From Hydrangea macrophylla (Eukaryota > Streptophyta > Magnoliopsida > Cornales > Hydrangeaceae): a DNA stretch of 64,000 nucleotides. The number at the start of each line of letters is the position of its first letter. Positions within the stretch are counted from its first letter, which is position 1. Both the position numbers and the translations under genes were made by a program. The notes under the pieces are model-generated. The model had not been told where the DNA came from, did no database searches, and worked only from the letters and a program-made list of their open reading frames with translations. The DNA is taken from contig CM066993.1 of assembly GCA_033977485.1 (NCBI GenBank), forward strand, positions 25,410,001-25,474,000, in the 5' to 3' direction. Of this stretch, positions 30,966 to 60,900 are shown piece after piece.

Positions 30966-30969
30966 ACCA

Positions 30970-40470: not shown

Positions 40471-40475
40471 TTAGT
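40471..40475. other. Target site duplication, left
   Basis: ttagt here and ttagt at 61384-61388 flank the 20.9-kb element. Removing the element and one copy joins the chromovirus codons for IELV to the PGT that follows, as expected for this protein family. Confidence 0.9.
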
Positions 40476-43400
40476 TGTGGACCACTGCGAATGAGGAGGT
40501 CCTGACGCTCTCCCTCGATAGTGTCCCGGGACGGATCCCAAGGAGCACACTTCAGGGAAAACTAGGACTTCCTCACGCGATCCTAGAGACAAAGAGTCGC
40601 CACCTAATTTTTATCGGGAATTAGGAAACCCAAGTTTGACTCGCCCAAAATTGAATAAGGTTACTCGCCCTTCATTACCAGAAACAAGGTTCGGGGGTCT
40701 TGGTACGAGAGGGGAAGGAGCCCAAGCAGGACTAAAGCACCCCCTCCTCGCCCTACCGAATGGTAGGCCTTGATTCAAATATCCTTGTTATTAATTCATA
40801 ATAGATGTTGTTTCCTCAAACATACTAGATAGATATATACATGGCAAAAAGAAACATCTAATGAAAATCATTTCAAGAGACTAAATCAAGTAGAAAGCGG
40901 ATGCTCATGCAATACAAGGGAAAAGTATACTCACAGTGGCTAGTCCCGCCCGGGACCGATGCAAATAAAGTAAACATGTCATGATATGCAAAGGGAACGA
41001 GAAGACTTACATTGGTTGACTCAAGCGGAGTCGCGAAAGCAAAAAGAATGGAAACGTGCAATGCAATCATGCAACAATCCTAGATAAGATGTCTCTAACA
41101 AATAATCATATAAACGGAGACTATCCTAAAGGAATTGTGTCGTTGAAATCAAAGTTGTAAACCTAGAAAAATTCTAAGAGAAAGGATAGAGATAGTACAC
41201 GATACATGGGCACTAAGCCACATGTAGACGAGGCAAACCACAAATCGAAGTCCGGGTCCGAGGCACTTAATTCTCTGCACTAATACACCAAAGAATACCC
41301 AAGCATTGCAAAAATACAAGCAAACAAATGATATGCATGATAAACAAAGAAAACATGTCATCAATCAAATTTCCAGATTCAGCAACCTCTAATGAATCCT
41401 ATCAAAAGTGGTCTTAAACATGAGCTGGATAAAAACCCTTTTACAGAAAGTTAGATACATGTCTTAGGGAACTTCTCCAAAAAGTGGGACCTCAATATCA
41501 ATTTTATTGTTTGAGAAATAAATGTTTTGGGAATAGTGGATCAGGACTGTCCACTGTTCTTGTAAAAATTATAATTAAATCTACAAAAATCATATGAAGC
41601 TCTATTTGGTGTAAAAAGAAAGCTATTTCATTGTAGTATATGATAAAAATAAACCCATTGACATTCTGTAATCACAAGGTTTCTGAAAAAGTGTTTTAAA
41701 CAGACTCTGTTATTCTGGAAATTTGGTATCATTTGACAAATGAATGCAAAACATAATAGAAGTATAATAGAAGTTCATGAATCATGTTAACCAAGTTGAT
41801 TTAAGCTTTTGATCTCTCATCCATTTATCCTAGGTGATTTCTAAACCAAGTTTTATTCATCAATTGTTGTTGAGTGATCAAGGTATGACCATTTTGTATA
41901 CATAATCATATTTGTAATTAAACTTAGAAAATTCCAGAATAGTTGTATCAACTTTAAACGCTTAGAAAACGATCCTAACTCGATCGTATGCTCACGATTT
42001 TACATCGGCATATAGATATATGAGTTAGGAATCATCCCCAAAAAGCGGAACGTCGATAACTATTATAGATTTTCTGAAATTCAAGCACAAAGAGACGATG
42101 TTCAAATCTGTCAACCGATTTCTCAACAATTTCTAAAAATAGTATATGAATCCTAAAAGCTCTCAAAACGGACCGGATGAAAGCTAATTCATTAAAGTTT
42201 ACCCAGAAAATTTGAAATCCATCAAACTATGGGTTTTGATGGACCAAATCTAATGGACAAAACCAATCTGCTTTGCTGAATTTTTATCTAGTTCATTTTA
42301 AAGTGTGAGGAAAACATTTTAGTGATAGTTGAAGCTTATTAGAGAGATCAAACTCATAGATCAACTTAATTATCATGATTCCCAATCAATTTAGCCCTCA
42401 AGTTCTATGAAGAACTTTTAGATCAAGGATCAAAGGGACTTATAAATATCATGTTGGAGATGAAATTCAATAGGAATCCTAGGTAATAGGAATAATCAAG
42501 AGATAGGTATGAACATAGAAATCATCCTTCTCATAGACCATATTTCCAAACCATCATGGAATTCAAAATAGATATATGTATATATATATAATCATGTATG
42601 CATGAATCTAAACTAAAATTGAAGAATGAAACCAAAATTGAAAATCAAAGTGAAAAACAATCTCTAATTGTAAATTATCAATAAAAATCAAAGAGATTTG
42701 GATCTAACTATGTGAGTGTGTGAAGAACATGAGAGGAAGAAGATGAGTGTTCTAATAAGTAGAAATAGAACTAAGTTAGATCCAAATCTTATAGATCTAT
42801 ATATACAAAGTAGGAATTAGAGATGAACTATAGTGTTTACCTCTTGGAGGATTCTCAATTACAAGACCAAAATTGATTTGAAGATCTTCTTCTTCAAGTG
42901 TTATTCAAGTGTTCTTCAAGCACTCATCCATGGAAGTTGAGGGAGGCAATTGATGTTCAAATTGTGGTCTAATTAGCCTAAGTTAATCTAAATTCAATTC
43001 ATAATTTTCTCTCTCTAGAATTCACCTAAATTGAAAGTATATTCAAAGTATACTTATCTCTCTTGTATGTGCTTCTATGTGTGTTTGTATCTCCAAGTAT
43101 ATTCAAGTGTATCTCTTCCAAGTGTCTAGTGTGTTAAGATGTGATCTCATATGAGATGTATGAGATCTTATATAGAGTTTTGAAGACTTAGCTCTTAAGT
43201 TTCAGGGTTAAAACAGGATTTTTAGAGCTTAAAAGAGGGTTAAAATGGCCATTTCGGAGCCTAAACGCAATTTCCAGGCAATTTCCTCGCAGTGGGAAGC
43301 TTCTAGAAGGGTCTGGAACTCAAAAAGCTCCGTGGAGGACAAAAATGGAAGTGGCGGTTATGGTGGGACCCGCCACCCCTATACCCAAAACCGCCATTTA

Positions 43401-43960
43401 CTATTTGGGTCCCTCTGGTCACCCACAAGCTCTGTTTCAAAAATCACGTGCACTGCTTTTCCAGATTTTTGTAAAAATGCTTTTTGGTGTCCGAAATCGT
43501 CCGTTTACGTACCGTTGGAAAGCTGTCAGGTTGAATTTCAGTATAAAAATATTTCCAGAGGTTTTATAATGAGAATTGAAGTCCAATTGAAGTCCGGAAG
43601 TCCTCCGGAACTTTCGTCGTCTTTTTGAAATCAAATGACGTCTTTTCCAAAATTGCTTTCAAATGTGCGTCGATTTCAAACTTTTCTTTAAAATTGAATC
43701 TCTGGATACCTAGAATACTGCGTTTAGAACACTTAATGTTCATATAACCCTGAGAGAATATGAATTCTGAGAGATGATTTTGACAAAACCGGGATTTATC
43801 CATGGAAAAGGGCTTTTCTGAGCTTGAAGTCACTTTCCGAAGTCCGATCTTCTGATTGTGTGGAATCCAGTACCTTCCACGGGGTACTTTTCATCATCGA
43901 ATCCTCCAAGACGTTGTCCACCCTAAATCCTATCAGTGTGGTCAAAATTGGGTGTCTACA
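40476..43960 (-). repeat. Tat 3' LTR (left copy)
   Basis: Begins tgtggaccactgcgaatgag and ends gggtgtctaca. From 40489 on it pairs with 57912-61383 at a constant offset of 17423, with no indel. Differences I see are at 40922, 41613, 41659, 42194, 42611, 43342 and 43678. A minus-strand TATA box (ctatataag) lies at about 43168-43177, and an inverted repeat with ggcggtt and aaccgcc at 43352-43400. No host-like gene is present: the ORFs 43245-43628 and the like are LTR sequence and recur in the right copy. Confidence 0.95.
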
Positions 43961-44560
43961 GTTTGCCCCTCTTTGGCAGAGCTTGTTGTGAACAACGTGA
44001 ACTGCAAGTGAGTGCCAAAGCCTTGAAGGCACCCAAATAACCATACTGAGAGGTTTTAGGAAAAACAAAAAATTCGCAAAATCAAGAAATTCAAAATCAG
44101 AGAAAATCAAGAAATTACGAATGCAAGAATGCAATGCAATGCTGGGTAGAGGCGGCTAAGTTGAAGCTGATGCTGGTCGTGCTCCGCTGGAGCTGCCTAC
44201 GTATCCTTTCCAGGAATCAGACCAGGGCGTAGTTCAAGCGCGCGGGAAAACGGAAAACAAACAACAACAATGCGGATGAAATGCTCCTATCCTAGGATGC
44301 TGGTGCAGTATGAAAACGTGAATGTGCAAGTGCTGGAGGAATCATCCTCAAGGGTTCCCTGGATGCAAAATCTAATGCAAGGGATGTAATGACTCTCTCT
44401 CACAGTCGAATATGCTAAAGGTATCTTGGATGATTCTCGAGGTTTTTGTCAAAGTTATTCTTCTGATCTTAAGGCTCGTAGGCGTCATCTGTATCCTGGA
44501 CGACTCTTGAAATAGCGAAGTATCTTGGATGAATTCTGAGTCATGTCAAACAACTGGACG
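43961..44560 (-). other. Polypurine tract and 3' untranslated DNA
   Basis: The complement of the polypurine tract (gtttgcccctctttggcaga) adjoins the LTR. The conserved hairpin-like motif is at 44192-44235 (ctgcctacgtatcc, aggaatcag, gcgtagttc). No gene. Confidence 0.75.
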
Positions 44561-44970
44561 ATTGCTGGTGTAGAGTCCTTCTGCTGGGGACGATTACTGA
44601 TGTAGAGTCCTTCTGCTGGGGACGATTGTTGATGTAGAGTCCTTCTGCTGGGGACGATTGCTGAAATAGGTCCTTCTTCTGTGGACGATTGCTGATGTAG
44701 AGTCCTTCTGTTGGGGACGATTGCTGATGTAGAGTCCTTTTGCTGGGGACGATTGCTGGTGTAGAGTCCTTCTGCTGGGGACGATTGCTGATGTAGAGTC
44801 CTTCTGCCGGGGACGATTGCTGAAACAGGTCTTTCTTCTGTGGACGATTGCTGATGTAGAGTCCTTTTGCTGGGGACGATTGCTGATGTAGAGTCCTTCT
44901 GCTGGGGACGATTGCTGATGTAGAGTCCTTTTGCTGGGGACGATTGCTGATGTAGAGTCATTTTGCTGGG
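44560..44970. repeat. Tandem repeat, 32-bp unit
   Basis: The unit gtagagtccttctgctgggg plus acgattgctgat starts at 44570, 44602 and 44634 and continues for about 12 copies, some with shortened variants containing gaaataggtccttcttctg. No frame on the minus strand meets a stop, which produces the long but meaningless frames 44485-44961 and 44594-45106. Confidence 0.92.
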
Positions 44971-45255
44971 GACAAATCTTCTGAAACAGGTCTCTCTGCC
45001 GGAGACAAATCTTCTGCTCTTCTGAAACAGGTCCTTCTTCTAGACAAATCTTCTGTAACAGGTCTGGAAACAAGTCTTCTGAAACAGGTCTCTCTGCCGG
45101 AGACAAATCCTCTGTTCTTCTGAAACAGGCCCTTCTTCTGGGGACAAATCTTCTGTGGCAGGTCTAGAAACAAATCTTCTGAAACAGGTCTCTCTGCCGG
45201 AGACAAATCCTCTGTTCTTCTGAAACAGGCCCTTCTTCTGAGGACAAACCTTCTG
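44971..45255. repeat. Tandem repeat with aacaggtctctctgccggag
   Basis: Units of about 30 bp, and a larger period of about 120 bp, contain ctgaaacaggtctctctgcc, ggagacaaatc and ttctgttcttctgaaacagg. It directly follows the 32-bp array and shares its ctgctgggga/ctgccggaga core, so it is probably a diverged derivative. Confidence 0.8.
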
Positions 45256-45800
45256 TTCTTGATGCACGGATTCTGAGAGATACACAAATTCTGAGAGATG
45301 ACCCTTCTTCTGAGAGCAACCCACGGATACACGATTCTGATTTTGAGAGAAACCCTACATTCTGGAGGCAACCCTGATATGCGATGCTGAGAAATACATG
45401 ATTCTGAGAGAAACCCTACATTCTGGAGGCAACCCTGGATACACGATTCTGATTCTGAGAGAAACCCTACATTCTGGAGGCAACCCACGATTCTGAGAGA
45501 AACCCTACATTCTGAGAGCAACCCACGGATACACGATTCTTGGCATAAACCTTGTATTCTGGAGGCGACCCACGATTCTGATTCAGAGAGAAACCCTACA
45601 TTCTGGAGGCAACCCACGATTCTGAGAGAAACCCTACATTCTGGAGGCAACCCTGGATACATGATGCTTGGCATAAACCTTGTATTCTGGAGGCGATTTT
45701 GATGCTCAAATTCTGAGAGATACCCTTTATCTGGAGGCAACCCGTGGATACATGATGCTTGCGAGAAACTTAATTCTGAAAGTTCTCTACTGGGGAGATC
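45256..45800. repeat. Tandem repeat with ttctgagagaaaccctacat
   Basis: Units of about 35-65 bp combine ttctgagagaaaccctacat, tctggaggcaaccc and cacgattctga. About ten copies are present, degrading toward 45980. The minus-strand frame 44958-45740 is a product of the repeat. Confidence 0.85.
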
Positions 45801-46657
45801 CTATGATTCTGAGAGATGCACGAATTCTGTATACCTTGACAATATCTGGAAATTCTCTGCTTGAGGAGATATCTGAGGTTTCTGGGACGCGAGCACATAT
45901 TCTGGAGGCCCTGCTGATTCTTTCTGAGACTCATATTGGTGCTTCGACCAACGCAATCATTCTTGCAACACGTCAGGCTTACTCTAACCCTTTCTGAACA
46001 TCTCGCATTCTGACCCATCTTCTGAAAGTCCTTTCTGGATGTAATTCTCAAGCGACAGTAGACTCAAATGTCCATTTTCTAAGACAACTCATAATCAATC
46101 CCAAAACGACGGGAGTTTGCCGTTTCTCGGCCACTTTCAGGCTGCGGTGCCTTTGATTCTTCTCATCTGGGGGACTTTTTTTTCAATTCTTGAATGGATT
46201 TTTACCAAGATTCAAATCTCCAGAGGTCCTCTAGACCAATTCCAACAAGTTTTAAGCACTCTCAAGGCTTATATATCAAAAATGGACCAATCCGGGATCA
46301 AATCAAGAGTTCCGGGGGTCAAAACACGAATATAGAGCAAAATGGGGAAATGGCAGGAAGTGAATAGTAAATGGCGGTTCCCCACACCCCCTTGGGAACC
46401 GCCAGCCGCAACTTTGGGGTTTTAAACCCATTTTCTTCTTTGTTCTTTATTCATTTCTTCTTCAATGCATCACCTCTTCCTTCTAAGGTGCTCAAATCTT
46501 GCAATTTCTTGATGTTTTGAGTGATTTCTTGCATTAAAACCTCCAAAAATTTTGTTGATTTCATCAACTCCTCCCTATTCTAGGGGATTCAAGTACCAAG
46601 GTTTTTACTATTCATCATCTTCAACCTCTTATCTTCAAGCTTCAAGCATCAACAACC
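45801..46657 (+). promoter_or_regulatory. Upstream region of the PMD gene
   Basis: No gene is seen before 46658. At 46373-46403 there is a perfect 10-bp inverted repeat, ggcggttccc and gggaaccgcc, around an 11-base loop. The half ggcggtt is shared with the inverted repeat upstream of the TATA box in this element's LTRs. A TATA-like ggggttttaaaccc lies at 46413, followed by a pyrimidine-rich leader. This is the expected place for the PMD promoter, though the exact start is not visible. Confidence 0.4.
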
Positions 46658-48785
46658 ATGAGTTCCCATGGACAAGGTGAAAGTTCTAGAACACGTAGAA
46701 GCCAATTTCAAGCTAGTGGAGCTTCATCAACTCAAACCATGGAGTATGCAACCATGAAAAATCCACTAAATCATATCTCTAGGAGGGCCTTTCGTCAAGA
46801 GGTAACCCATTCTTTAATTACTCCTTTGTTTCACATCTTCATACGTGTCTCTTTATTCTTGCGATTCCTTAGAAATCATCCTTTTTCTTTTTAGAATGTG
46901 GTTGGTCATCTTAGAGGTCATGGTAGCCATGGAAAATGCCTTGAATGGTTTAATGAATTGTCGGAGTCGCGTCCCCAAGTAGTAGCCAATATCAAGCAAG
47001 CGGGCTTTGGGTCGTTTGTAACCTTATTGGAGAGATCGACTAATGATTTGGCCATGATTCAAGCTCTTGCTGAAAGGTGGTGGGATTCCACAAATACTTT
47101 TCACATGCCTTTTGGGGAGATAACCATGACCCCTCTTGATTTTGCAATGATAACCGGCATCTCATTTGGCGGGCATCGTCTTGCCTTTGCAAAGAACATC
47201 CATAGACATCCTACTATCATTGAGCGTCTCCTAGGCATCATCCCATCCCAGAGAGATCTTCACGGATCGAGCGTAGGCATCACATGGTTCATCAACAACT
47301 TCAGGCCTTCTGAAAGAGCGGCTCAATTTACCGATATGCAGCTTACCCGTGCTTTCATCTTGTATTTGCTTGGTTGCTCTCTTCTTTCTACTCGAGCTGA
47401 GCGGATTACATTGAATATGCTTGATAGTCTTCGAAATCTTGAGGAGATTGCAGATTTTGATTGGGGCTCTGCTGGTTTAGCCATTCTGTATAGTCATATG
47501 GGGGAGCATTCTCGAGGCAAATCCCCTGGATTCGGCGGATTCTGGAGAGCTTGGGAGGTACTGAAAATATTTTCATTTCCAGTTTTTATCATTTGATGTT
47601 CTGCTGTTTTGACCACTGCTTTATTTTCCCTTGTAGGTGTGGGCCTTTGAGTATTTCTCCATGACGGCTCCATCATTCCGGGAGGAAGAGATTCATATTT
47701 TTCCACGGGCTCTGAAGTGGCGTCGCCAAGCCGTAGGTACCAAGAATGATGCTCATAATGTTATTTCTTGCCGGGATTTTCTTACCCGTCTCAGATTCAC
47801 CCAAGTTAACTGGCATCCTTGGGTGACAAATGGAGATGTGACTGAGATTGGCTTAGCTAGACAGATGACTGGAGAGAGGATTCTTCTTGAGGGTCCCTCT
47901 GTTCTTGAGTGGTATCTTGGAGAGAGAGTAGCTCCTCAGACTGATTTGGAGGATCGTCTCTTAGTGCCACAGGATCCGCCTTCTTGTATGAGGTCGGCGC
48001 AGAATTTGGAAGATGAAGATCTTATTAATGCTTTGAACGGAATTCCTTCAGCCTCTTTTACTCTGTTTGAGGAGAACTATGACGTCTTCAGGGTTACTCA
48101 TCTGATGCCTAATTTCCCGCTCTCGGATGACCCGCAGGTATTTCACGACTTCTTCATTTCTGATCGAATGCTTGCTTTATCTTATTTCTTATCATCATTT
48201 GCAGGGGAGTTCTTTTGTGGATGGCCCTGGTCGACCTCTACCTCTCATTCCTCCTTGTGATTGGCGAGCCTCGACCATGCTGCGCGGAGTTATATCTTCT
48301 GTAGAGATCCCCCGTGATCTTGTAGAGCCTCAGCTAGTTTCAGAACAACATGAGTCCGTTCCCCGAGCCGTTATCAATGAAGAGCGAGCTTATGCACAGA
48401 ATCTGAGGGCTTGGAGCCTTGCTCGTGAGGGACATGTAAGTAATTTCTGAACTCATTACCTCTGATTCTTCTGATCTTTCTGACCATATCTTTCTTCTCT
48501 TTGCAGTGGGATGGCATGTGCCAGACTTACATAGACCGTGATGCGGCCCTGGTAAATTTCTTGACCTTTTCTTCTTATCTCATTGCTTTTTCAAACCCCT
48601 ATACTGATTCTTTTCTTCCACAGGTGGCTCAAGTTAGGCATCTTCAATCACAGTTGGAGCGGATGAATGCAGGCCCTTCTGGTGGGGCTGGTGGGTCTAG
48701 GCGAAGGCGCCAAATTGAAGATGATGATAGCTCTACGGCCTCAGATATGCCTGCTTGGTACCCATGGGCTACTCGTCGTCGCTGA
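46658..48785 (+). CDS. PMD (MAIN/MAIL1-like) protein, six exons, antisense in Tat element
   Basis: PMD proteins (PF10536) include Arabidopsis MAIN and MAIL1, nuclear proteins needed for meristem maintenance and transposon silencing, and many transposon-borne relatives. I infer six exons: 46658-46801, 46895-47557, 47637-48137, 48205-48435, 48507-48551 and 48624-48785. Each intron is 67-93 bp with GT and AG borders and a T-rich 3' end, and each coding exon length divides by three, so all introns are phase 0. The spliced frame has 581 codons without a stop. Signature residues: ALAERWWDSTNTFHMPFGEI then TPLDFAMITGI (exon 2), a Trp-rich middle (GFWRAWEVWAFEYFS across the exon 2-3 junction), PLPLIPPCDWRAS (exon 4), a short coiled coil (VAQVRHLQSQLERM) and a basic, acidic and Trp-rich tail (exon 6). 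It converges on the integrase ORF and may be expressed from its own promoter. Confidence 0.85.
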
Positions 48786-49299
48786 TGATGATCATATGCA
48801 CCCATGACTATCTTTCTATTTTTCTTGCTTTCTGTGCTGAGACTGATGTTGATGTATTCTGTCTGAGACTTGATGGGCTTGTACTCTTGACTTTGCTTGA
48901 TGCTGTTTTATGCTATCCTTCTGTTTCGCTTTGCATCCCTTGTCACGAGACTGATTTGATTGACACTTTGCACACTGACACACAGGACTCGATTTTACAG
49001 GGAAAGGAAATTTCTGACGATTCCTCTTTCTCGACAATGTCTTTTGACTTGGATATTTGAATTTTCTAAGGATTTGCATGTTTTTGAAAATGAGATTTTA
49101 TCTTGTAGCAGGATATTGTGTTGGCTTTGCATGTAATCTTGAAGCTTTTGAAAATTTTCCACATAATGTTTCAGTCTTGACATTAGATTCACATCTTTAG
49201 ATTGCTAAAAAAAACTTTTCAACTTAATATCAAGAATTACCAGATTTTTCACTTAGGTGCTTTAATTCTGATAGCCAAGTGATCCAGAGAGGACAGGTA
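48786..49299. other. Spacer between PMD and pol
   Basis: Noncoding, T-rich sequence that should contain the 3' ends of both convergent transcripts. I see no clear terminator. The ORFs at 48755-49192 are not credible. Confidence 0.5.
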
Positions 49300-49440
49300 G
49301 CGAGGTATGGGCAAACGACAGTTTGCCCCTAGTTGACAGAGATAAATGGAAGTTTGGGCAAACGCAGTTTGCCCCTAGTGTGGCAGTGATATCTTGAGGC
49401 TTTGGGCAAACTTGAAAGTTTGCCCCTAGTTTGCAAGGTT
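49300..49440 (-). repeat. Internal polypurine-tract-like array
   Basis: Three units contain gggcaaac(n)gtttgcccctagt (about 49311, 49358 and 49407). On the minus strand the motif actaggggcaaac repeats the core aggggcaaac of the true polypurine tract at 43961. The same array type is at 29451-29690 in the older element. Confidence 0.65.
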
Positions 49441-49659: not shown

Positions 49660-51429
49660 TTAAGCATAGTATCTCTTGAGACGGTCAATGTTGATTGGCT
49701 GATTGAACTCAACTCCATCTAGATCCATCAGGTATGCCGCTCCTCCAGAGAGAAGCTTCTTGATGACGTATGGGCCAACCCAATTTGGCTTGAATTTCCC
49801 TCTAGGATCGAAAACGGGTGCTTTTAAGGCTTTAAGCACAAGGTCGCCTTCCTCAAGTTTTCTTGGACGGACCTTCTTGTTGAATGCTCGAGCTATTCTT
49901 CTCTGATACACATGCACATGATCAATTGCGGCCAACCTTTTCTCATCAAGTAACATTAGCTCCTCATATCTATCTCTTAGCCAATCAAATTCTGGAATCT
50001 CGGATTCTGCCACAACTCTCAAAGATGGTAGTTCTATTTCAACTGGGAGTATTGCTTCGATTCCGTAAGCCAATGAATAAGGAGTGGCTCCTGTAGATGT
50101 TCGGATAGATGTTCTGTATCCCCACAGTGCATACGGTAACTTCTCATGCCAATCTCGGTATGTATCAGTCATCTTTCTTAGGATCGTCTTCAAATTCTTA
50201 TTAGCTGCTTCAACTGCCCCATTTGTTTGTGGCCTATACGGCGCTGACATGTGGTGCATGATCTTGTATTCTTCTAGTAGATCCAAAACCTCTTTCTGGA
50301 AGTGACTGCCATGATCGGATATCAACTCATGAGGGACCCCGTATCGGCAGATTATATTTCTTCTGATAAATCTGGCCACATCTTTAGCCTTCAATGTCGC
50401 ATAAGACTCTGCTTCCACCCATTTTGTGAAATAATCAATTGCTACCAGGATGTATTGATGCCCATTAGACGCCTTCGGGGTTACTTCTCCAATAACATCT
50501 ATTCCCCAAACTGAGAATGGCCAAGGGGTAGTCATGTTGTATAGCAGTGACGGCGGCACATGCTTCATATTGGCATGGATCTGACATTTGTGACATTTTC
50601 TGACATATTCATAGCAGTCCTTGTCCATAGTAGTCCAATAATATCCTTGTCGGATGATCTTCTTAGCTAACATGTGTCCACTCATATGAGGACCACACAC
50701 CCCTTCGTGAATTTGCTCCATCATCTTTCTCGCACTGTTTCCATACAGACATGTCAAGTTGAATCCATTGTGAGATCTCTTCAATAGATTTCCGCCACAA
50801 ATCATGAATTGAGCCGAGAATCTTCTTATGGCTCTCTTGTCTTTCTCAGAGGCGCCTTCCGGATATTCCCCATTTTCAATGAAGTTCCACACGTCGGTGT
50901 ACCACGGAAGTTCTTCTGCTTCTTCTATTTCCCCAATCATCTCATAAGACGGCTTTTCCCTTTGTTCAATCATCAAAGGAGTTAGCTTTATCCCCACAGG
51001 AATCTCAATCATTGACGCTAAAGTAGCCAAAGAGTCTGCTAGCTGATTTTCTTCTCGAGGCAGGTAGAAGAACGTGATATGCAAGAAACGAGTTCGTAAA
51101 GAATCAAGATACTCATGATAGGGTTTTAACTTCTCTTCCTTGACTTTCCAATCTCCTCGAACTTGGGATATGATCAAATTGGAATCCCCGAATACATCAA
51201 GTTTCCTTACCTCCAAAGTCAATGCGGCTTCTAGCCCCAAGATACAAGCTTCATACTCAGCAGTGTTGTTGGTGGAGGTGTACTTCAGCTTAATAGAGAA
51301 TGGGGTATGTGCTCCTTCAGGGGATACAAGGATGATTCCTACTCCATATCCTTTTTGGTTTGCAGCTCCATCAAAGTACATTTTCCACACATCTTCTTTT
51401 AATTCCATCAATCCTTCGTCAGGGAACAT
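49660..51429 (-). CDS. pol: Tat pol, second part: archaeal-type RNase H and integrase
   Basis: This 589-codon frame starts at the first ATG (MFPDEGLMELKED), but coding similarity begins further upstream (about 51490), so it is the continuation of the larger polyprotein after a frameshift. Residues 15-140 form an RNase H with Asp20 (MYFDGAA), Glu58 (NNTAEYEA), Asp82 (FGDSN) and Asp132 (ENQLADSLA), the set acquired by the Tat clade. Integrase follows: zinc ligands His241, His248, Cys279 and Cys282, then the DDE triad at Asp311 (WGIDVIG), Asp372 (ISDHGSHF) and Glu407 (TNGAVEAAN), with a C-terminal region containing RPRKLEEGDLVL and FKPNWVGPYVI (GPY/F module). Integrase joins the DNA copy to the chromosome. 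All key residues are present. Confidence 0.93.
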   Translation of the reverse strand: MFPDEGLMELKEDVWKMYFDGAANQKGYGVGIILVSPEGAHTPFSIKLKYTSTNNTAEYEACILGLEAALTLEVRKLDVFGDSNLIISQVRGDWKVKEEKLKPYHEYLDSLRTRFLHITFFYLPREENQLADSLATLASMIEIPVGIKLTPLMIEQREKPSYEMIGEIEEAEELPWYTDVWNFIENGEYPEGASEKDKRAIRRFSAQFMICGGNLLKRSHNGFNLTCLYGNSARKMMEQIHEGVCGPHMSGHMLAKKIIRQGYYWTTMDKDCYEYVRKCHKCQIHANMKHVPPSLLYNMTTPWPFSVWGIDVIGEVTPKASNGHQYILVAIDYFTKWVEAESYATLKAKDVARFIRRNIICRYGVPHELISDHGSHFQKEVLDLLEEYKIMHHMSAPYRPQTNGAVEAANKNLKTILRKMTDTYRDWHEKLPYALWGYRTSIRTSTGATPYSLAYGIEAILPVEIELPSLRVVAESEIPEFDWLRDRYEELMLLDEKRLAAIDHVHVYQRRIARAFNKKVRPRKLEEGDLVLKALKAPVFDPRGKFKPNWVGPYVIKKLLSGGAAYLMDLDGVEFNQPINIDRLKRYYA

Positions 51430-51493
51430 GAACTCTCCTTCGTTTTCCAGATTTATCGGATGTTCTGCTAAATGTTCTGCGACAGCCCTTCCT

Positions 51494-54400
51494 TTAACAG
51501 ATCAAGTCAAACTCAGATAGCATCAATGTCCATCGGGAGATTCTTCCGGTCAATGCTGGTTTTTCAAATAGGTACTTCAAAGGATCCATTCTGGAGATTA
51601 AAACAACAGGGAAGGCCAACATATAATGCCTCAGACGACGAGTGGCCCAAACCAAAGCCCAACATGTCTTTTCTAACGGAGAATACTTCAATTCGTATCC
51701 AGTCATCCTTTTACTTAAGTAGTAAATGGCTTTCTCTGTACGCCCTTCATCTCCTTCTTGGGATAACATGCATCCCATAACATTCTCTGACACGGATAAG
51801 TACAACAGCAAAGGCTTCCCTGACTTTGGGGGTGAAAGAACCGGTGGGTTTGATAAATAAGCCTTGATCTTGTCAAAAGCTTCTTGACATTGATTGTCCC
51901 ATTCGAATTTCTTCCCTTTTCTCAACAAGCTGAAAAGCGGATCGCAAGTAGCAGTGAGCTTAGATATGAAGCGGCTGATGAATTGGATTCTTCCCAGAAA
52001 TCCTCTTACTTCCTTTTCATTTGTCGGAGGCGGCATATCCATAATAGCCTTGATCTTTGTGGGGTCAACCTCAATTCCTCTCTGTGTGATGAGAAATCCT
52101 AGCAGCTTTCCGGTGGTAACTCCAAAAGTACACTTCTGTGGATTCAATCTCATTCTGTATTTCCTTAATCTTTCAAAGAACTTGGCGAGTGCTGTTAAAT
52201 GCCCACTTCTTTCTTTGGACTTAACAATCATATCATCCACATAAACTTCTACCTCTTTATGGATCATATCATGTAACAAAGTAGTAGCAGCTCTCTGATA
52301 GGTTGCGCCAGCATTCTTTAACCCAAATGGCATCACTCGGTAGCAATACGTCCCCCAGTGAGTTGTGAATGTAGTCTTTTCTCTGTCTTCGGGTGCCATT
52401 AAAATCTGATTGTACCCTGAGAAACCATCCATGAATGATAACAACTCATGCCCCGCGGTGCTATCTACCAGAACATCTATGTGTGGAAGCGGAAAATCAT
52501 CCTTAGGACTAGCCTTGTTTAGATCTCTGAAGTCAACACATACACGGATCCTTCCATCCTTCTTTGGCACAGGAACTATATTGGCTATCCATTCCGGATA
52601 TTGGGTTGCCATCAGGAATCCAGCTTTCAATTGTTTCTCAACTTCTTCTTTGATCTTCAAAGTCCATTCGGGTCTCATGCGTCTCAACTTTTGCTTAACA
52701 GGTTTTGAATTTGGAAAGAGAGGGATGTGGTGTTGGACAATCTCTGGATCGATGCCTGGCATATCTTGGTAGGACCAAGCGAAAATATCTTTAAATTCTT
52801 TTAATAAGTTGATTAGTTCATTGCTTTCTTGTGAAGTGAGCGTGGTGCCAATATGAACATTTTGTGGATTATCTTCATTATCCAAGTTTATTAGCAAAGT
52901 TTCTTCAATAATCTTGCATGCAGATTCATTTTCATTTTCAATTAATCTTTGCAAATCCTCAGAAATTTCAAAATCAAGATCATCAGACACAGAAGAGTAA
53001 GCAAAATCCTCGTTCATTTCATTAACATTTTTGGGTACATCAAAAGCAAAAGCAGACTCAACATCATGGCTCATATTGGCCTTTACAGACTTCCGGGGAA
53101 ATGGGGGAGGGGATTTGTTGACTTCCGATTCTATCACCCAATTGTTCAGAGCTCCCTCTATTGGCTTGATTTCTTTCACATTTCCCAGTGCTTCTTCGGC
53201 ATCCATCAGCATGTTCAGCTCTTCATCCATTAGCATGTTCAAATCATCACTTGTCATCAGCTCAGCCCAGTCCTTCCTTTCTTTCTTGATAGGCGGAGTA
53301 TACAAGAACGGATCCTCATAGTCGGAGAACTCATGTTTGAAGAAAATCTCAAATCCAGGCTTAATGTTCTTGGTAGCCGGATCATACCATGGTTCAGGGA
53401 ACCCACAGAAGGGAAAGTCATCGCCTTCTTTCACGAAGTATCCATTCAGGATTCTTGGCCCAGAAACAACCATCGGCCCTTTTCCTTTTGTCATCTTCTT
53501 CTTATCTTCTTCAGTCAATTGATACCCAAGCCCAGATTTATCTTTCTGTTCGTGGAAGTTCGGTGGTTCAGTTATTCCTTGTTGACGACGACCTAGTCCC
53601 ATTCCAGGAAAATAGTTCATCTTCCGCACCATATGAGCCACTTTAGGATTGGCATACTGGTCAAAGTACAATGGCATGACTTCAGGGATCCAATTCTGTC
53701 CCACTTCTTCTTGTAGATCTTTGGCAACCGGGTTTCCCTTCTCGAACATCTTTCTATATTCGCGTCCGGTGATGAACGGCTTCTTTTTCTTGATCGGAGT
53801 GATTTCTTCGCCCCAGACAGATGCATCAGGAAGTTTCTTCTCATAGCTGAGTCGATCCCAAACGGATTTCTTTTTCTTAGCTCCTTCATTTATCATTCCC
53901 ACAAAGTTGAATCCTCCTAATTCATTTTCTTCTTCCGGTGTTTGGACTTCTAGCACAGGACCATGGCTTGTCCCTTCTTCTTTGATCCAGCTATCCCCAA
54001 AGATTGTTACCACATCCTCTTTCCAGATGAACTTGACTTTCTGGTGGAGAGTGGAGGCGACTGCATCATTCACATGTAACCACGGACGTCCCAATAGCAG
54101 ATTAAAGCTAGCCGGAATATCAATCACTTGGAAATCAGCTTCTTTGTTTAATGGCCCGACTTCAATTTTCAACTTAATCATTCCCACAATGGCCCTTTTG
54201 GTGTTATCATAGGCCCTCACAGTTTGTGTTGATGGCAAGAGTTCTGAAATAGACAACCCCATTCTGAGAGCTGTTTGGAGAGGACATACATTCAAGGCTG
54301 ACCCATTATCTACCAAGCAGACCGGTACTCTATTCCCCAGGCAATGTACAGTGATGTAGAGAGCTCTGTTGTGGTGTGCCCCTTCCGGCGGTAAATCTTC

Positions 54401-56551
54401 ATCTGTGAATGTGATTACAGGCTTACAAGGCTTTGAAGAGATCATGTTTACTAGATCTTCGGGAGTAGTATTGACAGAAACATCCAAACGATTGAGAGTA
54501 TCGAGCATGGCCTGCCTGTGTTTGTGAGAGGTCATAAGTAATCCCCATACTGAGATCCAAGCTTGTGTTTTCTTCAATTGCTTTAGGATTTCATCTTCTT
54601 CTTCGCTCACGGCTCCTTTACCAGCCTCTTTTGCTTTGACGACTTCTTTCTCATTCCATGTTTCTTTTCCACGATTTTCTAACTCATGAGGCTTGAAATG
54701 ACGTCCGGAACGGGTCAAGTGGTTTGCTTCATTGGTGATCCAGATAGACTCAAGTTCTTTGGCTAACTTTTCGGTGCCAACAGTGATTTTCCAAACAGAA
54801 TCATCGGGGATTATGGTATTATTAACGGAATCATCCTCATCATCATACCACCAATCTTCTTCTTCTTCCATCATTGCAATAAGATCGTCATCTTTGATTT
54901 CAAGGTTCTCGACAGGCTTTAGCAATTCTTCTATCGGCTCAGTGCTTTGTTTCTCGGTGACTGCTTCTATGGGCTTTTCTTCCTCATACCAGATCGAGTC
55001 GTCGGTGATGGCATTGGGATCCCACCATTCAATTGTAAGATTTCCGTTGGCTATTTCTTCTTCAAAAGCCAGTGCTTCTTCGACCCATTCTTCCTCTTCC
55101 ATATTCCTCAAGATGCAAATTGCAGCGTCTTCCGGAAGTTGAACATCCATAGCTGGTTGATTCGAGGATGTGATGTAGATCTTTGGGTTATAAATCTGAG
55201 ATCCTTCTTCTACAAAGTTAACATTTGGCGTGTTCCCCTTATGATTAGGGAGAGGATTCTTCTGAACATTTGGCTGAGAGGGAGGAGGGGAGATGACCCC
55301 TTTTTCAATCAAGTCTTCAATTTCATGGCGAAGTCTCCAGCATCTATCTGTGCTATGTCCACGGCCTTGATGAAAGTCACAAAAGAACTCTGTTTTGAAA
55401 CCCGGTGGAAGTGGATTTGGCTCTGGTTTAGGTTCCAATTTCTGCAAGTACCCTTTTTCTATCATTCTTTCAAGTGCGGTGCTTAGTGGCATCCCCAAGT
55501 CGGAAAATTCTCTTTTCTCTCTCGACTGTTTCTGATTTTGACTTCCTCTTGCATTAGCCATACTTCGACGCTCTTTCTGAAAAGGCTGAGGAGATAGTGT
55601 GTTGACGTCAGCAGACTGATGATAGACTGGCCTTTCTGTCTTTCTGTATCGATTGCTCGTGCTTTCTTTCTTGATCTTTCCATCTCTAATGGCATCTTCT
55701 ATCAAAGTTCCCACATCAAACAGCTGTTCGAAACTCACAATGGACTGAAATTCTAGCCTTTCCAAGTATTCGGGCTGTAGATTCTTGATGATCATTCGGA
55801 CTTGATCTTTTTCCGCTGGCCTGCTAGTCATTTGAGCAGCTTTAGCTCTCCAACGAGTAAGGAAACCTGCGAAGGATTCCCTGTACTCTTGTCGGGTGGT
55901 TTCTAGATCTCTTGCAGTTACATCAAACAACTGGTTATATGAATATTGAGCCACGAAAGCTTTGGCCAATGCCTCCCAATCTCTGGTTATGGCTGGTTCC
56001 AACGTCAAGTACCATGAAAGTGTTGCTCCACTCAAAACTCTTGGAAACAATAGAGCGAAGAGGTCAGATCCAATGCCCATGGGCTGCAAAGTTCCTACAT
56101 AAAGCCTCAGATAGCTCTTTGGATTTCCGGTTCCATTGAAAAATTCAATATGCGGCATCTTAAACTTCTCTGGGAGTTTGGCTTTTGGAGCGTCACACAA
56201 CCCTTCAACATCGAACAAATACTCATCCACCCCTTTGCTCTTTCTGATCACACTCTCTAGTTTGTCGATCTTGGCCAACTTGTCCTGAATTTCCTGATCT
56301 AGCTGAACCTTTGGTTGAACTGTCTCCCCAAAATCTTCTTCTTCATGATGCTCTGGAGGTGGTGGTGGTGGTGGATTAGTTAGCTGCTCAATCATTCTCA
56401 TCATAGTGGCAAGTTGTTCTCGATTCTGCTCCCTGCTCTGATCCAAGGCAGCTTGCATTACGGCCAATCTGGCTTCCATATCCGCTTCGTATGTCATATC
56501 TTCAACCCTAGTCGACTCGGCTGTTCCTTCTTCTAACCCTGATCTGATCAA
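51494..56551 (-). CDS. gag-pol: Tat Gag-protease-G-patch-RT-RNase H polyprotein
   Basis: A 1685-codon open frame. In order: a coiled N-terminus with a Pro run (about 59-66); the Gag core (about 135-270, FNGTGNPKSYLRLYVGTLQP); a zinc-knuckle-like CDFHQGRGHSTDRC at 391-404, with His at the second position; a very acidic linker (480-580); the protease active site VDNGSALNV near Asp748 with LLLGRPWLH at 818-826; a G-patch-like FPGMGLGRRQQG at 981-992; RT from about 1285 with the catalytic YVDD at 1437-1440; and the gypsy RNase H (1570-1680). In that RNase H the first catalytic Asp is missing (LSVSENVMGCML where the family has DAS), as is usual for Tat elements with a second RNase H. It ends LSEFDLIC-stop; the next residues of the family appear in another frame, so the stop marks a small deletion or frameshift. 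Confidence 0.93.
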   Translation of the reverse strand: MIRSGLEEGTAESTRVEDMTYEADMEARLAVMQAALDQSREQNREQLATMMRMIEQLTNPPPPPPPEHHEEEDFGETVQPKVQLDQEIQDKLAKIDKLESVIRKSKGVDEYLFDVEGLCDAPKAKLPEKFKMPHIEFFNGTGNPKSYLRLYVGTLQPMGIGSDLFALLFPRVLSGATLSWYLTLEPAITRDWEALAKAFVAQYSYNQLFDVTARDLETTRQEYRESFAGFLTRWRAKAAQMTSRPAEKDQVRMIIKNLQPEYLERLEFQSIVSFEQLFDVGTLIEDAIRDGKIKKESTSNRYRKTERPVYHQSADVNTLSPQPFQKERRSMANARGSQNQKQSREKREFSDLGMPLSTALERMIEKGYLQKLEPKPEPNPLPPGFKTEFFCDFHQGRGHSTDRCWRLRHEIEDLIEKGVISPPPSQPNVQKNPLPNHKGNTPNVNFVEEGSQIYNPKIYITSSNQPAMDVQLPEDAAICILRNMEEEEWVEEALAFEEEIANGNLTIEWWDPNAITDDSIWYEEEKPIEAVTEKQSTEPIEELLKPVENLEIKDDDLIAMMEEEEDWWYDDEDDSVNNTIIPDDSVWKITVGTEKLAKELESIWITNEANHLTRSGRHFKPHELENRGKETWNEKEVVKAKEAGKGAVSEEEDEILKQLKKTQAWISVWGLLMTSHKHRQAMLDTLNRLDVSVNTTPEDLVNMISSKPCKPVITFTDEDLPPEGAHHNRALYITVHCLGNRVPVCLVDNGSALNVCPLQTALRMGLSISELLPSTQTVRAYDNTKRAIVGMIKLKIEVGPLNKEADFQVIDIPASFNLLLGRPWLHVNDAVASTLHQKVKFIWKEDVVTIFGDSWIKEEGTSHGPVLEVQTPEEENELGGFNFVGMINEGAKKKKSVWDRLSYEKKLPDASVWGEEITPIKKKKPFITGREYRKMFEKGNPVAKDLQEEVGQNWIPEVMPLYFDQYANPKVAHMVRKMNYFPGMGLGRRQQGITEPPNFHEQKDKSGLGYQLTEEDKKKMTKGKGPMVVSGPRILNGYFVKEGDDFPFCGFPEPWYDPATKNIKPGFEIFFKHEFSDYEDPFLYTPPIKKERKDWAELMTSDDLNMLMDEELNMLMDAEEALGNVKEIKPIEGALNNWVIESEVNKSPPPFPRKSVKANMSHDVESAFAFDVPKNVNEMNEDFAYSSVSDDLDFEISEDLQRLIENENESACKIIEETLLINLDNEDNPQNVHIGTTLTSQESNELINLLKEFKDIFAWSYQDMPGIDPEIVQHHIPLFPNSKPVKQKLRRMRPEWTLKIKEEVEKQLKAGFLMATQYPEWIANIVPVPKKDGRIRVCVDFRDLNKASPKDDFPLPHIDVLVDSTAGHELLSFMDGFSGYNQILMAPEDREKTTFTTHWGTYCYRVMPFGLKNAGATYQRAATTLLHDMIHKEVEVYVDDMIVKSKERSGHLTALAKFFERLRKYRMRLNPQKCTFGVTTGKLLGFLITQRGIEVDPTKIKAIMDMPPPTNEKEVRGFLGRIQFISRFISKLTATCDPLFSLLRKGKKFEWDNQCQEAFDKIKAYLSNPPVLSPPKSGKPLLLYLSVSENVMGCMLSQEGDEGRTEKAIYYLSKRMTGYELKYSPLEKTCWALVWATRRLRHYMLAFPVVLISRMDPLKYLFEKPALTGRISRWTLMLSEFDLIC

Positions 56552-57911
56552 ACGGCTGTTCGGAGCTCTGACCCAGAAAGGAGTACAACTTTTCGGTCCT
56601 ATCTTTTCTTATCTGGTTTATTTAGGGATTTTCAAATAATCAGGTATCTTTATTGCAAAAGAATTTTTCAAAGAATGATATAAGAAGGTGGATTTACAAA
56701 GATGGAAATCATAAATGGAAAATCATTTCCTTTTTCAAAAACATTTTTCTTAAAATCAAAGAAATCTTTTCAAGCTTTCAAAATTCTGAGGAAAACAAAT
56801 CTTTTCTTTTGAAAGTATATTAGAGGCGTCGCACTCGTGAGTCGTATATGCAATGCTCGTGTAGTGCATGCAAATGCAGATGAAATGCAATCTAATCTAA
56901 ATGCAATGCACCTTAATCTAGCTTAGACCTAGCACATCAGCACATAAGCACATAAGATTCCTTGAGTATGCTAATCACCCTACTAATCCAATCATTATCC
57001 AAGGATTTTGAGTTTTGAAATTCTTGATGGTTCAGGTTTGAAAATTGAAATTTTTCATGAAAATCTTTGAAAAAGATGGGGAGATTTGTAATTTTCAAAA
57101 GAATTTTTGAACCATCAATGCTTGTGGTGAGAAATCATGATTCTTAAAAATTGAGGTGGGAATTTTGAAATTCTAAGATCTGAGAGGAAGATTTTGAAAT
57201 TGAATCATCATGATTTCTTGAAGACCAAAGTAAAATTTTTTTTTTTTTGAAATTCTCTAAAATCTAGGAGAATTTGAAATTGAATCATCAAAGTGTGATC
57301 ATGATTTCTGGAAATAGGAATTTTGAAATTCTCTAAAATCTAAGGAGAATTTTGGAAAGATTTTGTGAAAGTGAATCTCAAAGCAAATTTTCAAAAGGGA
57401 TATTCTTGGAATTTTCAAAAGACTTGGGGTTTTTCAAAGAAGTGCTTATAGTTTCAAAAATTTTCAAAATTGTCCTCAAATAATGATTGGATGTTCGGAT
57501 AAAGACCATACTATCCTAGAGGAATCCACCATACAAGGTTTGATGATGCCTTCGCATACACGTCCTCATCATCCACATAATCCCTTACGGGCAAGCACAA
57601 GTAATTCATCACATTGTCCTAATCAAAGATGATAATCAAGATCCTAATTGAAGGGTTCTATAGAAACTATATGCAAAGGCCGGGTTTTAGTCTCATAAAG
57701 GGTCCATTAGCAAGCTCAGCGGTGTGGTTGACCGCCTCCCCGAGGGCGTGCCGTTCACACATAGGCTCTATATACCGCACGCGGTACAAGGCTAACGGTG
57801 ACTACATGCTACCAAAACTCTTGACAAATAGAGGAAAGATGACTCTCTATCTTCAAGGCAATGATCTCAAGCAGTCGCGGTGAAAGAACAATGCAAGTGC
57901 AAATGCAGGCA
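56552..57911 (-). other. Tat 5' untranslated region, primer site absent
   Basis: About 1.36 kb of AT-rich noncoding DNA with many attttgaaattc-type short repeats (57000-57480). It matches 16140-17270 and 31306-31946 in several phrases. Where those elements have cagagtcgcca just before the LTR, this one passes straight from gcaaatgcaggca into the LTR body, so the tRNA-Arg primer site is missing. Confidence 0.75.
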
Positions 57912-60900
57912 GAATGAGGAGGTCCTGACGCTCTCCCTCGATAGTGTCCCGGGACGGATCCCAAGGAGCACACTTCAGGGAAAACTAGGACTTCCTCACG
58001 CGATCCTAGAGACAAAGAGTCGCCACCTAATTTTTATCGGGAATTAGGAAACCCAAGTTTGACTCGCCCAAAATTGAATAAGGTTACTCGCCCTTCATTA
58101 CCAGAAACAAGGTTCGGGGGTCTTGGTACGAGAGGGGAAGGAGCCCAAGCAGGACTAAAGCACCCCCTCCTCGCCCTACCGAATGGTAGGCCTTGATTCA
58201 AATATCCTTGTTATTAATTCATAATAGATGTTGTTTCCTCAAACATACTAGATAGATATATACATGGCAAAAAGAAACATCTAATGAAAATCATTTCAAG
58301 AGACTAAATCAAGTAGAAAGCGGATGCTCATGCAATACAAGGGAGAAGTATACTCACAGTGGCTAGTCCCGCCCGGGACCGATGCAAATAAAGTAAACAT
58401 GTCATGATATGCAAAGGGAACGAGAAGACTTACATTGGTTGACTCAAGCGGAGTCGCGAAAGCAAAAAGAATGGAAACGTGCAATGCAATCATGCAACAA
58501 TCCTAGATAAGATGTCTCTAACAAATAATCATATAAACGGAGACTATCCTAAAGGAATTGTGTCGTTGAAATCAAAGTTGTAAACCTAGAAAAATTCTAA
58601 GAGAAAGGATAGAGATAGTACACGATACATGGGCACTAAGCCACATGTAGACGAGGCAAACCACAAATCGAAGTCCGGGTCCGAGGCACTTAATTCTCTG
58701 CACTAATACACCAAAGAATACCCAAGCATTGCAAAAATACAAGCAAACAAATGATATGCATGATAAACAAAGAAAACATGTCATCAATCAAATTTCCAGA
58801 TTCAGCAACCTCTAATGAATCCTATCAAAAGTGGTCTTAAACATGAGCTGGATAAAAACCCTTTTACAGAAAGTTAGATACATGTCTTAGGGAACTTCTC
58901 CAAAAAGTGGGACCTCAATATCAATTTTATTGTTTGAGAAATAAATGTTTTGGGAATAGTGGATCAGGACTGTCCACTGTTCTTGTAAAAATTATAATTA
59001 AATCTACAAAAATCATATGAAGCTCTATTTGGTGTCAAAAGAAAGCTATTTCATTGTAGTATATGATAAAAATAAACCCATGGACATTCTGTAATCACAA
59101 GGTTTCTGAAAAAGTGTTTTAAACAGACTCTGTTATTCTGGAAATTTGGTATCATTTGACAAATGAATGCAAAACATAATAGAAGTATAATAGAAGTTCA
59201 TGAATCATGTTAACCAAGTTGATTTAAGCTTTTGATCTCTCATCCATTTATCCTAGGTGATTTCTAAACCAAGTTTTATTCATCAATTGTTGTTGAGTGA
59301 TCAAGGTATGACCATTTTGTATACATAATCATATTTGTAATTAAACTTAGAAAATTCCAGAATAGTTGTATCAACTTTAAACGCTTAGAAAACGATCCTA
59401 ACTCGATCGTATGCTCACGATTTTACATCGGCATATAGATATATGAGTTAGGAATCATCCCCAAAAAGCGGAACGTCGATAACTATTATAGATTTTCTGA
59501 AATTCAAGCACAAAGAGACGATGTTCAAATCTGTCAACCGATTTCTCAACAATTTCTAAAAATAGTATATGAATCCTAAAAGCTCTCAAAACGGACCGGA
59601 TGAAAGCTAATTCATCAAAGTTTACCCAGAAAATTTGAAATCCATCAAACTATGGGTTTTGATGGACCAAATCTAATGGACAAAACCAATCTGCTTTGCT
59701 GAATTTTTATCTAGTTCATTTTAAAGTGTGAGGAAAACATTTTAGTGATAGTTGAAGCTTATTAGAGAGATCAAACTCATAGATCAACTTAATTATCATG
59801 ATTCCCAATCAATTTAGCCCTCAAGTTCTATGAAGAACTTTTAGATCAAGGATCAAAGGGACTTATAAATATCATGTTGGAGATGAAATTCAATAGGAAT
59901 CCTAGGTAATAGGAATAATCAAGAGATAGGTATGAACATAGAAATCATCCTTCTCATAGACCATATTTCCAAACCATCATGGAATTCAAAATAGATATAT
60001 GTATATATATATAATCATGTATGCATGAATCTAGACTAAAATTGAAGAATGAAACCAAAATTGAAAATCAAAGTGAAAAACAATCTCTAATTGTAAATTA
60101 TCAATAAAAATCAAAGAGATTTGGATCTAACTATGTGAGTGTGTGAAGAACATGAGAGGAAGAAGATGAGTGTTCTAATAAGTAGAAATAGAACTAAGTT
60201 AGATCCAAATCTTATAGATCTATATATACAAAGTAGGAATTAGAGATGAACTATAGTGTTTACCTCTTGGAGGATTCTCAATTACAAGACCAAAATTGAT
60301 TTGAAGATCTTCTTCTTCAAGTGTTATTCAAGTGTTCTTCAAGCACTCATCCATGGAAGTTGAGGGAGGCAATTGATGTTCAAATTGTGGTCTAATTAGC
60401 CTAAGTTAATCTAAATTCAATTCATAATTTTCTCTCTCTAGAATTCACCTAAATTGAAAGTATATTCAAAGTATACTTATCTCTCTTGTATGTGCTTCTA
60501 TGTGTGTTTGTATCTCCAAGTATATTCAAGTGTATCTCTTCCAAGTGTCTAGTGTGTTAAGATGTGATCTCATATGAGATGTATGAGATCTTATATAGAG
60601 TTTTGAAGACTTAGCTCTTAAGTTTCAGGGTTAAAACAGGATTTTTAGAGCTTAAAAGAGGGTTAAAATGGCCATTTCGGAGCCTAAACGCAATTTCCAG
60701 GCAATTTCCTCGCAGTGGGAAGCTTCTAGAAGGGTCTGGAACTCAAAAAGCTCCGTGGAGGACACAAATGGAAGTGGCGGTTATGGTGGGACCCGCCACC
60801 CCTATACCCAAAACCGCCATTTACTATTTGGGTCCCTCTGGTCACCCACAAGCTCTGTTTCAAAAATCACGTGCACTGCTTTTCCAGATTTTTGTAAAAA

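What the first reader, a model, noticed from the sequence alone, without database searches (positions are those of the whole stretch)
46658..48785. Intact six-exon PMD gene carried antisense inside a young retrotransposon
The plus-strand exons join into 581 uninterrupted codons with PMD signatures. All five introns have GT-AG borders, are 67-93 bp long and are phase 0. The host element is transcribed from the other strand, so these introns are invisible to splicing of the genomic RNA and can survive each retrotransposition cycle. A sense-oriented gene would lose them. Extra ORFs and transposon-borne PMD domains are known in plant Tat elements. A complete, apparently functional, intron-bearing MAIN-like gene in a copy this young suggests that the element keeps it for a purpose, for example interference with host silencing, in which MAIN/MAIL1 take part. 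That purpose is inference.
Basis: partly seen in the sequence, partly recalled or inferred. Interest (0 to 1): 0.92.

Follow-up and report, generated by a model that had tools for sequence, protein, structure and literature searches.

The report
Intron-bearing antisense gene inside a retrotransposon
A young plant retrotransposon carries, on the strand opposite its own genes, a protein gene with five predicted introns, at least four of them at positions shared with a distant sister family in which the protein shows strong purifying selection; the gene therefore likely does a job for the element, and its backward placement would hide the introns from splicing each time the element copies itself through RNA.

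Summary
Six plus-strand exons (46658-48785) join into 581 codons with a significant PMD domain. The host is a Tat-type Ty3/gypsy element (40476-61383, minus strand; LTRs 99.8% identical). The window's genome holds 412 places with the exon 2/intron 2 border and none with the spliced exon 2/exon 3 border (up to 3 mismatches). In 30 of 30 fetched copies (the window's included) all five introns have GT-AG ends and integrase lies on the other strand; 24 of 30 ORFs are intact. A second Tat family (37-44% protein identity) has introns 2-5 at matching positions and the same 45-nt exon 5; dN/dS in its PMD exons has median 0.04. So the gene is old, conserved and element-borne. Corrections: the PMD falls in a retrotransposon clade apart from MAIN-type PMDs, though some MAIN-type loci, one beside a MULE transposase, have an intron where intron 2 lies; and this copy lacks a primer binding site. 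PMD ORFs in Tat/Ogre elements and antisense extra ORFs are known; a conserved multi-intron antisense gene under protein-level selection was not found in the papers searched. Transcription, splicing and any anti-silencing function are untested.

The parts
46658..46801 (+). PMD gene exon 1 (48 codons)
   Evidence: GT donor after it in 30 of 30 copies; exon 1 not located in family R; codon usage does not favour its frame
46802..46894 (+). intron 1, 93 nt, phase 0
   Evidence: its acceptor lies at the same codon in family R by inspection
46895..47557 (+). exon 2, first half of PMD (profile 13-166)
47558..47636 (+). intron 2, 79 nt; position shared with family R and with three MAIN-type PMD loci
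47637..48137 (+). exon 3, second half of PMD (profile 181-290)
48138..48204 (+). intron 3, 67 nt
48205..48435 (+). exon 4
48436..48506 (+). intron 4, 71 nt, in-frame stops
48507..48551 (+). exon 5, 45 nt; 45 nt in 15 of 16 family R loci
48552..48623 (+). intron 5, 72 nt
48624..48785 (+). exon 6 and stop
46270..46276 (+). TATA-like sequence about 390 bp upstream of the ATG, candidate own promoter (untested)
   Evidence: one consensus match, no chance control
51494..56608 (-). gag, G-patch, reverse transcriptase and RNase H open frame
49660..51501 (-). additional RNase H (RVT_3) and integrase open frame, convergent with the PMD gene
40476..43960 (-). 3' LTR (40489-43960 shared with the 5' LTR)
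57912..61383 (-). 5' LTR, last 13 bp missing; primer binding site absent beside it
40471..40475 (.). target site duplication TTAGT (other copy 61384-61388)
43958..43970 (-). polypurine tract motif at the 3' LTR
49318..49427 (-). three further polypurine-tract-like motifs, each in a short palindrome, between integrase and PMD gene
44524..45760 (.). tandem repeats between PMD gene and 3' LTR

Best explanation
A Tat-type Ty3/gypsy retrotransposon carries, between integrase and 3' LTR and on the opposite strand, a predicted six-exon gene for a plant mobile domain protein; its exon plan is shared with a second Tat family in which selection preserves the protein sequence, so the gene is likely an accessory gene of the element, and its antisense placement would let the introns escape splicing of the genomic RNA. 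Shown: anatomy, orientation, copy numbers, presence of the introns in the copies, absence of spliced genomic copies for exon 2/exon 3, shared positions of introns 2-5, purifying selection in exons 2 and 3 of family R. Inferred: the gene has its own promoter (a TATA-like sequence is present) and is spliced from a plus-strand Pol II transcript; the LTR-driven genomic RNA carries the introns as reverse complement, where the splice signals are not read, so reverse transcription copies them unchanged. Inferred, less sure: the protein works in the nucleus on chromatin or transcription, where related host proteins MAIN and MAIL1 act with PP7L, and favours expression of the element by competing with or diverting that silencing module.
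For: Gene model and domain. Orientation: integrase end on the opposite strand in 30 of 30 fetched copies, the window's included; 68 of 100 listed integrase places have the PMD border at 2.66-2.77 kb in the same layout, and 68 of the 74 PMD borders listed in the same range have the integrase. Introns: five GT-AG pairs in 30 of 30 copies, 24 of 30 ORFs intact; 412 unspliced against 0 spliced borders at intron 2, up to 3 mismatches. Sister family R: 37-44% protein identity; intron 2 at the same codon with GT-AG ends in 15 of 16 loci, exon 2 (from its PEF motif on) free of stops and length changes in 16 of 16; introns 3-5 at matching places, exon 5 of 45 nt in 15 of 16; integrase antisense in 2 of 2 elements examined. 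Selection: dN/dS median 0.042, range 0.028-0.14, in the 80 of 91 pairs with dS above 0.1, from 14 copies; divergence by codon position 0.048, 0.024, 0.246. Host PMD proteins in silencing: PMC5418596 and PMC7156037 (passages).
Against: No RNA data: neither transcription nor splicing is shown. A scan for three polyadenylation-like words in 48786-49400 found none, and codon usage does not favour the frame of exons 1, 5 and 6. Copies came from the top of ranked hit lists (40 scored of 1660 candidates, 30 fetched; 77 of 16,633, 16 fetched), which favours intact copies. Among recent window-family copies the variants look neutral and 6 of 30 have stops. Integrase patterns outnumber PMD borders 704 to 412; of 3 unpaired integrase places fetched (of 32), one has a partial PMD and one none at that place: elements without it exist. 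The spliced-junction search was answered for one intron of one family only. The silencing role rests on kinship to MAIN/MAIL1, and the PMD here lies outside the MAIN-type rows.
Confidence: 0.72

Rival explanations
1. The antisense transcript itself, not the protein, is what matters: it pairs with the genomic RNA, gives small RNAs and regulates (or betrays) the element.
For: Such a role is proposed for antisense ORFs in PMC7264820 (passages). [quoted passage not shown]
Against: Selection acts on the protein: dN/dS 0.04, changes concentrated at third codon positions, exon plan and splice sites kept while intron lengths vary.
Confidence: 0.12
2. Passenger gene: a host PMD gene captured by chance and carried along without use.
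For: Recent copies vary neutrally and 6 of 30 carry stops; deletion derivatives exist.
Against: Two Tat families at 37-44% PMD identity share the exon plan, and family R shows dN/dS 0.04 with dS up to about 1.5; the window family's intron 2 border occurs 412 times.
Confidence: 0.06
3. Same gene, other job: the protein is a working part of the replication cycle (nuclear entry, cDNA or integration-site choice) and not a silencing antagonist. This disputes only the last, inferred step of the best explanation.
For: Antisense accessory proteins of related elements are nuclear or predicted to bind DNA (Grande GENE23, TRP28; PMC7264820 and PMC11963269, passages). Location next to integrase.
Against: No direct evidence; the PMD proteins described in the papers seen act in silencing and gene expression.
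Confidence: 0.3
4. The PMD gene sits in the element by a nested insertion of another transposon.
For: A MAIN-type PMD gene lies beside a MULE transposase elsewhere in this genome (L040).
Against: No long inverted repeats around the gene (five pairs of 14-28 nt only); same layout in 30 of 30 copies and in the second family.
Confidence: 0.02

Closest known systems
PMD-type extra ORFs of Tat/Ogre Ty3/gypsy elements (Neumann 2019 PMC6317226; PMD-A clades of Ikeda 2017 PMC5418596; Steinbauerova 2011, not held, recalled)
   Same: Plant mobile domain carried by Tat-lineage gypsy elements; reported in 57% of Ogre elements; Gypsy-encoded PMD clades spread in angiosperms.
   Different: Neumann 2019 took open frames of at least 250 codons; the exons here give stop-to-stop frames of 233 and 207 codons. 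The passages seen describe no introns. Two Hibiscus proteins join a DUF7745/PMD-like part to reverse transcriptase on the same strand. Here the PMD gene is antisense, 3' of pol and has five predicted introns.
Antisense extra ORFs between pol and 3' LTR (Grande gene23, RIRE2, Retand TRP28)
   Same: Position, orientation, tandem repeats nearby (PMC7264820, PMC11963269; passages).
   Different: Other domain (no TRP28 match in the PMD protein); the word intron does not occur in the text held of those two papers.
MAIN/MAIL1 silencing proteins
   Same: Same Pfam domain; three MAIN-type PMD loci in this genome have an intron at the position of intron 2.
   Different: Separate clade; function untested.
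MULE-borne PMD genes
   Same: PMD gene convergent with a transposase gene in L040.
   Different: DNA transposon, so introns need no protection from an RNA stage.

Membership tests
Plant mobile domain proteins | PF10536 above its cut-off | tested here: met
   140.4 bits against 34.9
Tat lineage of Ty3/gypsy | additional RNase H; between RH and integrase in Ogre/Retand | tested here: met
   RVT_3 upstream of integrase in ORF 49660-51501, after RT_RNaseH in ORF 51494-56608
Ogre | primer binding site of the tRNA-Arg type | tested here: inconclusive
   absent from the window copy; 4 of 4 sister copies have a site of that look beside the LTR, but the match to tRNA-Arg is recalled, not tested
[quoted passage not shown]
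   no TRP28 in the PMD protein; other frames of that region were not scanned
MAIN/MAIL (genic PMD-C) | groups with MAIN-type sequences in a tree | tested here: not met
   outside the five MAIN-type rows; 13-row clade 100/100, long branches flagged. MAIN-type was assigned by a recalled motif, no Arabidopsis sequence was at hand
PMD-A of Ikeda et al. | clusters with their PMD-A sequences | not testable with these tools
   their sequences are in supplements, not available; being Gypsy-borne fits
Antisense accessory gene of an LTR element | same position and strand across copies, protein under selection | tested here: met
Antisense accessory gene of an LTR element | transcribed and spliced from the plus strand | not testable with these tools
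   no RNA data

The most novel reading that the evidence does not exclude
Tat retrotransposons have carried a complete multi-intron gene through RNA-based replication since before two families at about 40% PMD identity parted, by keeping it on the strand that their genomic RNA hides from the spliceosome. Its intron 2 is homologous to that of MAIN-type PMD genes, so element gene and host silencing gene descend from one intron-bearing ancestor, and the element protein is a rival of the host's MAIN/MAIL1 silencing module.
Probability: 0.35. Interest if true: 0.85.

Novelty: new variant of a known kind. Interest (0 to 1): 0.68.

Why it matters
RNA-copied elements are expected to lose introns. A natural gene that keeps five of them by lying antisense shows in evolution a route long used by experimenters in retrotransposition reporter cassettes (recalled). 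It gives a way to find hidden accessory genes: scan the antisense strand of LTR elements for spliced genes, which open-frame surveys with a 250-codon cut-off miss. The shared intron 2 bears on a question left open in Ikeda et al. 2017, whether the genic PMD came from Gypsy elements or the reverse: it suggests that the common ancestor already had an intron, which argues against passage through a spliced sense copy.

Tried and rejected
Structure: an AlphaFold model of the Rhododendron relative P0002 came out at mean pLDDT 45.5, so no fold search was run. PDB sequence search: 0 hits. Viral-contig scans with exon 2, with the PMD alignment and with pol pieces, and a prokaryote-genome scan with the PMD alignment, gave no relatives. 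A second profile search added no new proteins. dN/dS between the window family and family R could not be given because synonymous sites are saturated. Family R intron 2 lengths that are multiples of three were considered as a sign of translation and dropped: 11 of 16 have in-frame stops. Nested insertion was rejected. The Steinbauerova 2011 paper is not held.

Full report
Observation. Joined, they give 581 codons and a stop; all five introns are GT-AG, 67-93 nt and phase 0. The protein matches the Pfam plant mobile domain at E=1e-40. Introns are T-rich (48% T, 33% GC) against exons at 48% GC. The longest spliced ORF that can be built there is 621 aa, against a maximum of 339 in 60 shuffles and 258 on the other strand; 4 of 19 other stretches of the window also reach 401-581 aa, three of them in another element's coding region. 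A codon-usage score trained on pol and exons 2-3 favours the predicted frame for exons 2, 3 and (weakly) 4, but not for exons 1, 5 and 6. Related proteins come from Rhododendron, Prunus and Camellia: 23 at E up to 0.001, 22 of them 30-38% identical and one 25%. Compared with the window DNA, several end and restart at the intron 2 borders. Of 72 columns conserved in 22 of these relatives, the window protein agrees in 60, against 94 of 369 other columns.

The host element. It lies on the minus strand with LTRs of 3472 compared bases differing at 7 and the duplication TTAGT on both sides; the joined flanks read, by inspection, as the pol frame of another gypsy element. The order gag, G-patch, RT, RNase H, additional RNase H, integrase makes it a Tat element of the Ogre/Retand type by the published scheme (PMC6317226, passages). 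The PMD gene lies between integrase and 3' LTR, convergent with pol. The 5' LTR end and primer binding site are missing in this copy, while 4 of 4 sister copies examined have them; so the copy is young but probably could not copy itself unaided.

Family in the genome. The window's genome is held (2.22 Gb, 19 contigs). A search with the gene DNA scored 40 places of 1660 candidates, all near-identical over bases 1 or 3 to 2201 of the query. In the 30 fetched (the window's own copy is one), all five introns keep GT and AG, 24 ORFs are intact and 6 have stops, and the integrase end lies on the opposite strand in 30 of 30. A 36-base pattern across exon 2/intron 2 occurs 412 times with up to 3 mismatches (control 0); the pattern for the spliced exon 2/exon 3 border occurs 0 times. 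An integrase pattern occurs 704 times. Pairing used the 100 listed integrase places (perfect matches, contigs C1 to C3 at 59.4 Mb) and the 74 of 100 listed PMD borders in that range: 68 pairs, 2661-2769 bases apart, same layout. Of 3 unpaired integrase places fetched (of 32), one has the PMD with its intron, one a part of it, one none at that place.

Sister family. A search with the Rhododendron protein P0002 found a second PMD family (77 places scored of 16,633 candidates), 37-44% identical to the window protein. In the 16 loci fetched, exon 2, from its PEF motif on, has the same length and no stop, and intron 2 (93-126 nt) sits at the same codon, with GT-AG ends in 15. Introns 3, 4 and 5 lie at matching places: exon 3 donor GT in 16 of 16, exon 4 acceptor AG in 16, exon 4 donor GT in 15, exon 5 acceptor AG in 15, exon 5 donor GT in 14, exon 6 acceptor AG in 14; exon 5 is 45 nt in 15 of 16, as in the window. 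Exon 1 of this family was not located, but the acceptor of intron 1 appears at the same codon (by inspection). In the two elements whose flank was fetched the integrase, 76-79% identical to the window's, is antisense to the PMD gene, and in one more locus a reverse transcriptase match is too.

Selection. Between 14 of the 16 family R copies (two dropped for an early stop in exon 3), dN/dS over exons 2 and 3 has median 0.042 and range 0.028-0.14 in the 80 of 91 pairs with dS above 0.1. Differences per site are 0.048, 0.024 and 0.246 at codon positions 1, 2 and 3. The loci were the best-scoring ones, which selects intact copies, but neutral sequence would not give dS near 1 with dN near 0.05. 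Within the window family the distinct variants are 28 nonsynonymous (3 of them stops), 11 synonymous and 10 intronic; 32 of these 49 are C-to-T changes, 27 of those in a single copy: decay after insertion. Selection therefore acts on the lines that spread, not on each copy. In one pair of family R elements the integrase has dS 0.27 while the PMD gene has 1.2, which suggests exchange of PMD segments between elements.

Kinship. In a tree of 22 rows the window protein, family R and the Rhododendron, Prunus and Camellia proteins form a 13-row clade (100/100) apart from five MAIN-type loci, two other genomic PMD loci and two DUF7745 proteins (the program warns of long branches). MAIN-type was assigned by a recalled motif. 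L040, a near-identical sister of tree row L039, lies beside a MULE transposase. Three MAIN-type loci (L039, L040, L044) have, by inspection, an intron at the place of intron 2, one (L043) reads through it, two (L041, L042) were not resolved. So the intron probably predates the split of retrotransposon and MAIN-type PMDs.

Mechanism. Most likely the gene is transcribed from its own promoter and spliced, and the genomic RNA, being the complement, carries the introns unread; this follows from how splicing reads sequence and was not tested. A TATA-like word lies upstream (no chance control); a scan for three polyadenylation-like words downstream found none. What the protein does is inference: host PMD proteins MAIN and MAIL1 silence transposons and act with PP7L (PMC5418596, PMC7156037, passages), and Ikeda et al. 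suggested anti-silencing use for PMDs captured by MULEs. I favour an accessory protein acting on chromatin or transcription to the element's benefit.

Known and new. PMD extra ORFs in Ogre and antisense extra ORFs in Retand, Grande and RIRE2 are in print (passages). I found no report of a multi-intron antisense gene in an LTR element with conserved introns and protein-level selection in the searches, of which I read passages of eight papers (one section in full) and otherwise saw listings; subscription papers such as Steinbauerova 2011 could not be read.

Noticed in passing
window 49318-49427 (-) and 43958-43970 (-): The polypurine tract motif of the 3' LTR recurs three times just after integrase (two of the three with one mismatch), each inside a short palindrome; the core also recurs twice near integrase in each of two family R elements (L061, L062). 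Possibly internal primers for second-strand synthesis, or a trace of how the PMD block was inserted.
   Followed up: partly
L061:763-1896 (+), L062:1285-1890 (+): Family R elements have a second antisense ORF between PMD gene and integrase, with weak DUF7745/PMD matches.
   Followed up: partly
family R, L045/L062 against L055/L061: PMD gene dS 1.2 but integrase dS 0.27 in the same element pair: perhaps mosaic elements.
   Followed up: no
window 51494-51501 (-): The RT/RNase H frame and the additional RNase H/integrase frame overlap by 8 bases in different frames; by design or by mutation, not examined in other copies.
   Followed up: no
window 24220-35134: Another element with LTR-like repeats 86.6% identical and the same polypurine motif at 27483; weak DNA similarity to the big element.
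   Followed up: partly
window 4435-16115: Element with 374-bp repeats 96% identical, gag and RT on the plus strand and a Transposase_32 match below its cut-off.
   Followed up: no
L039, L040, L044 and places: MAIN-type PMD genes, L040 beside a MULE transposase on the opposite strand; several places share the same score, so the family looks multi-copy. Ikeda et al. reported PMD-MULE fusions in grasses and Amborella.
   Followed up: partly
family R intron 2: Six distinct lengths (93, 105, 114, 120, 123, 126 nt) are all multiples of three although 11 of 16 introns have in-frame stops. The search looked in one frame only; that, not bound to a frame, gave the same lengths for 12 loci.
   Followed up: no
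G000: 19 contigs and 2.22 Gb would fit Hydrangea macrophylla (recalled, untested).
   Followed up: no
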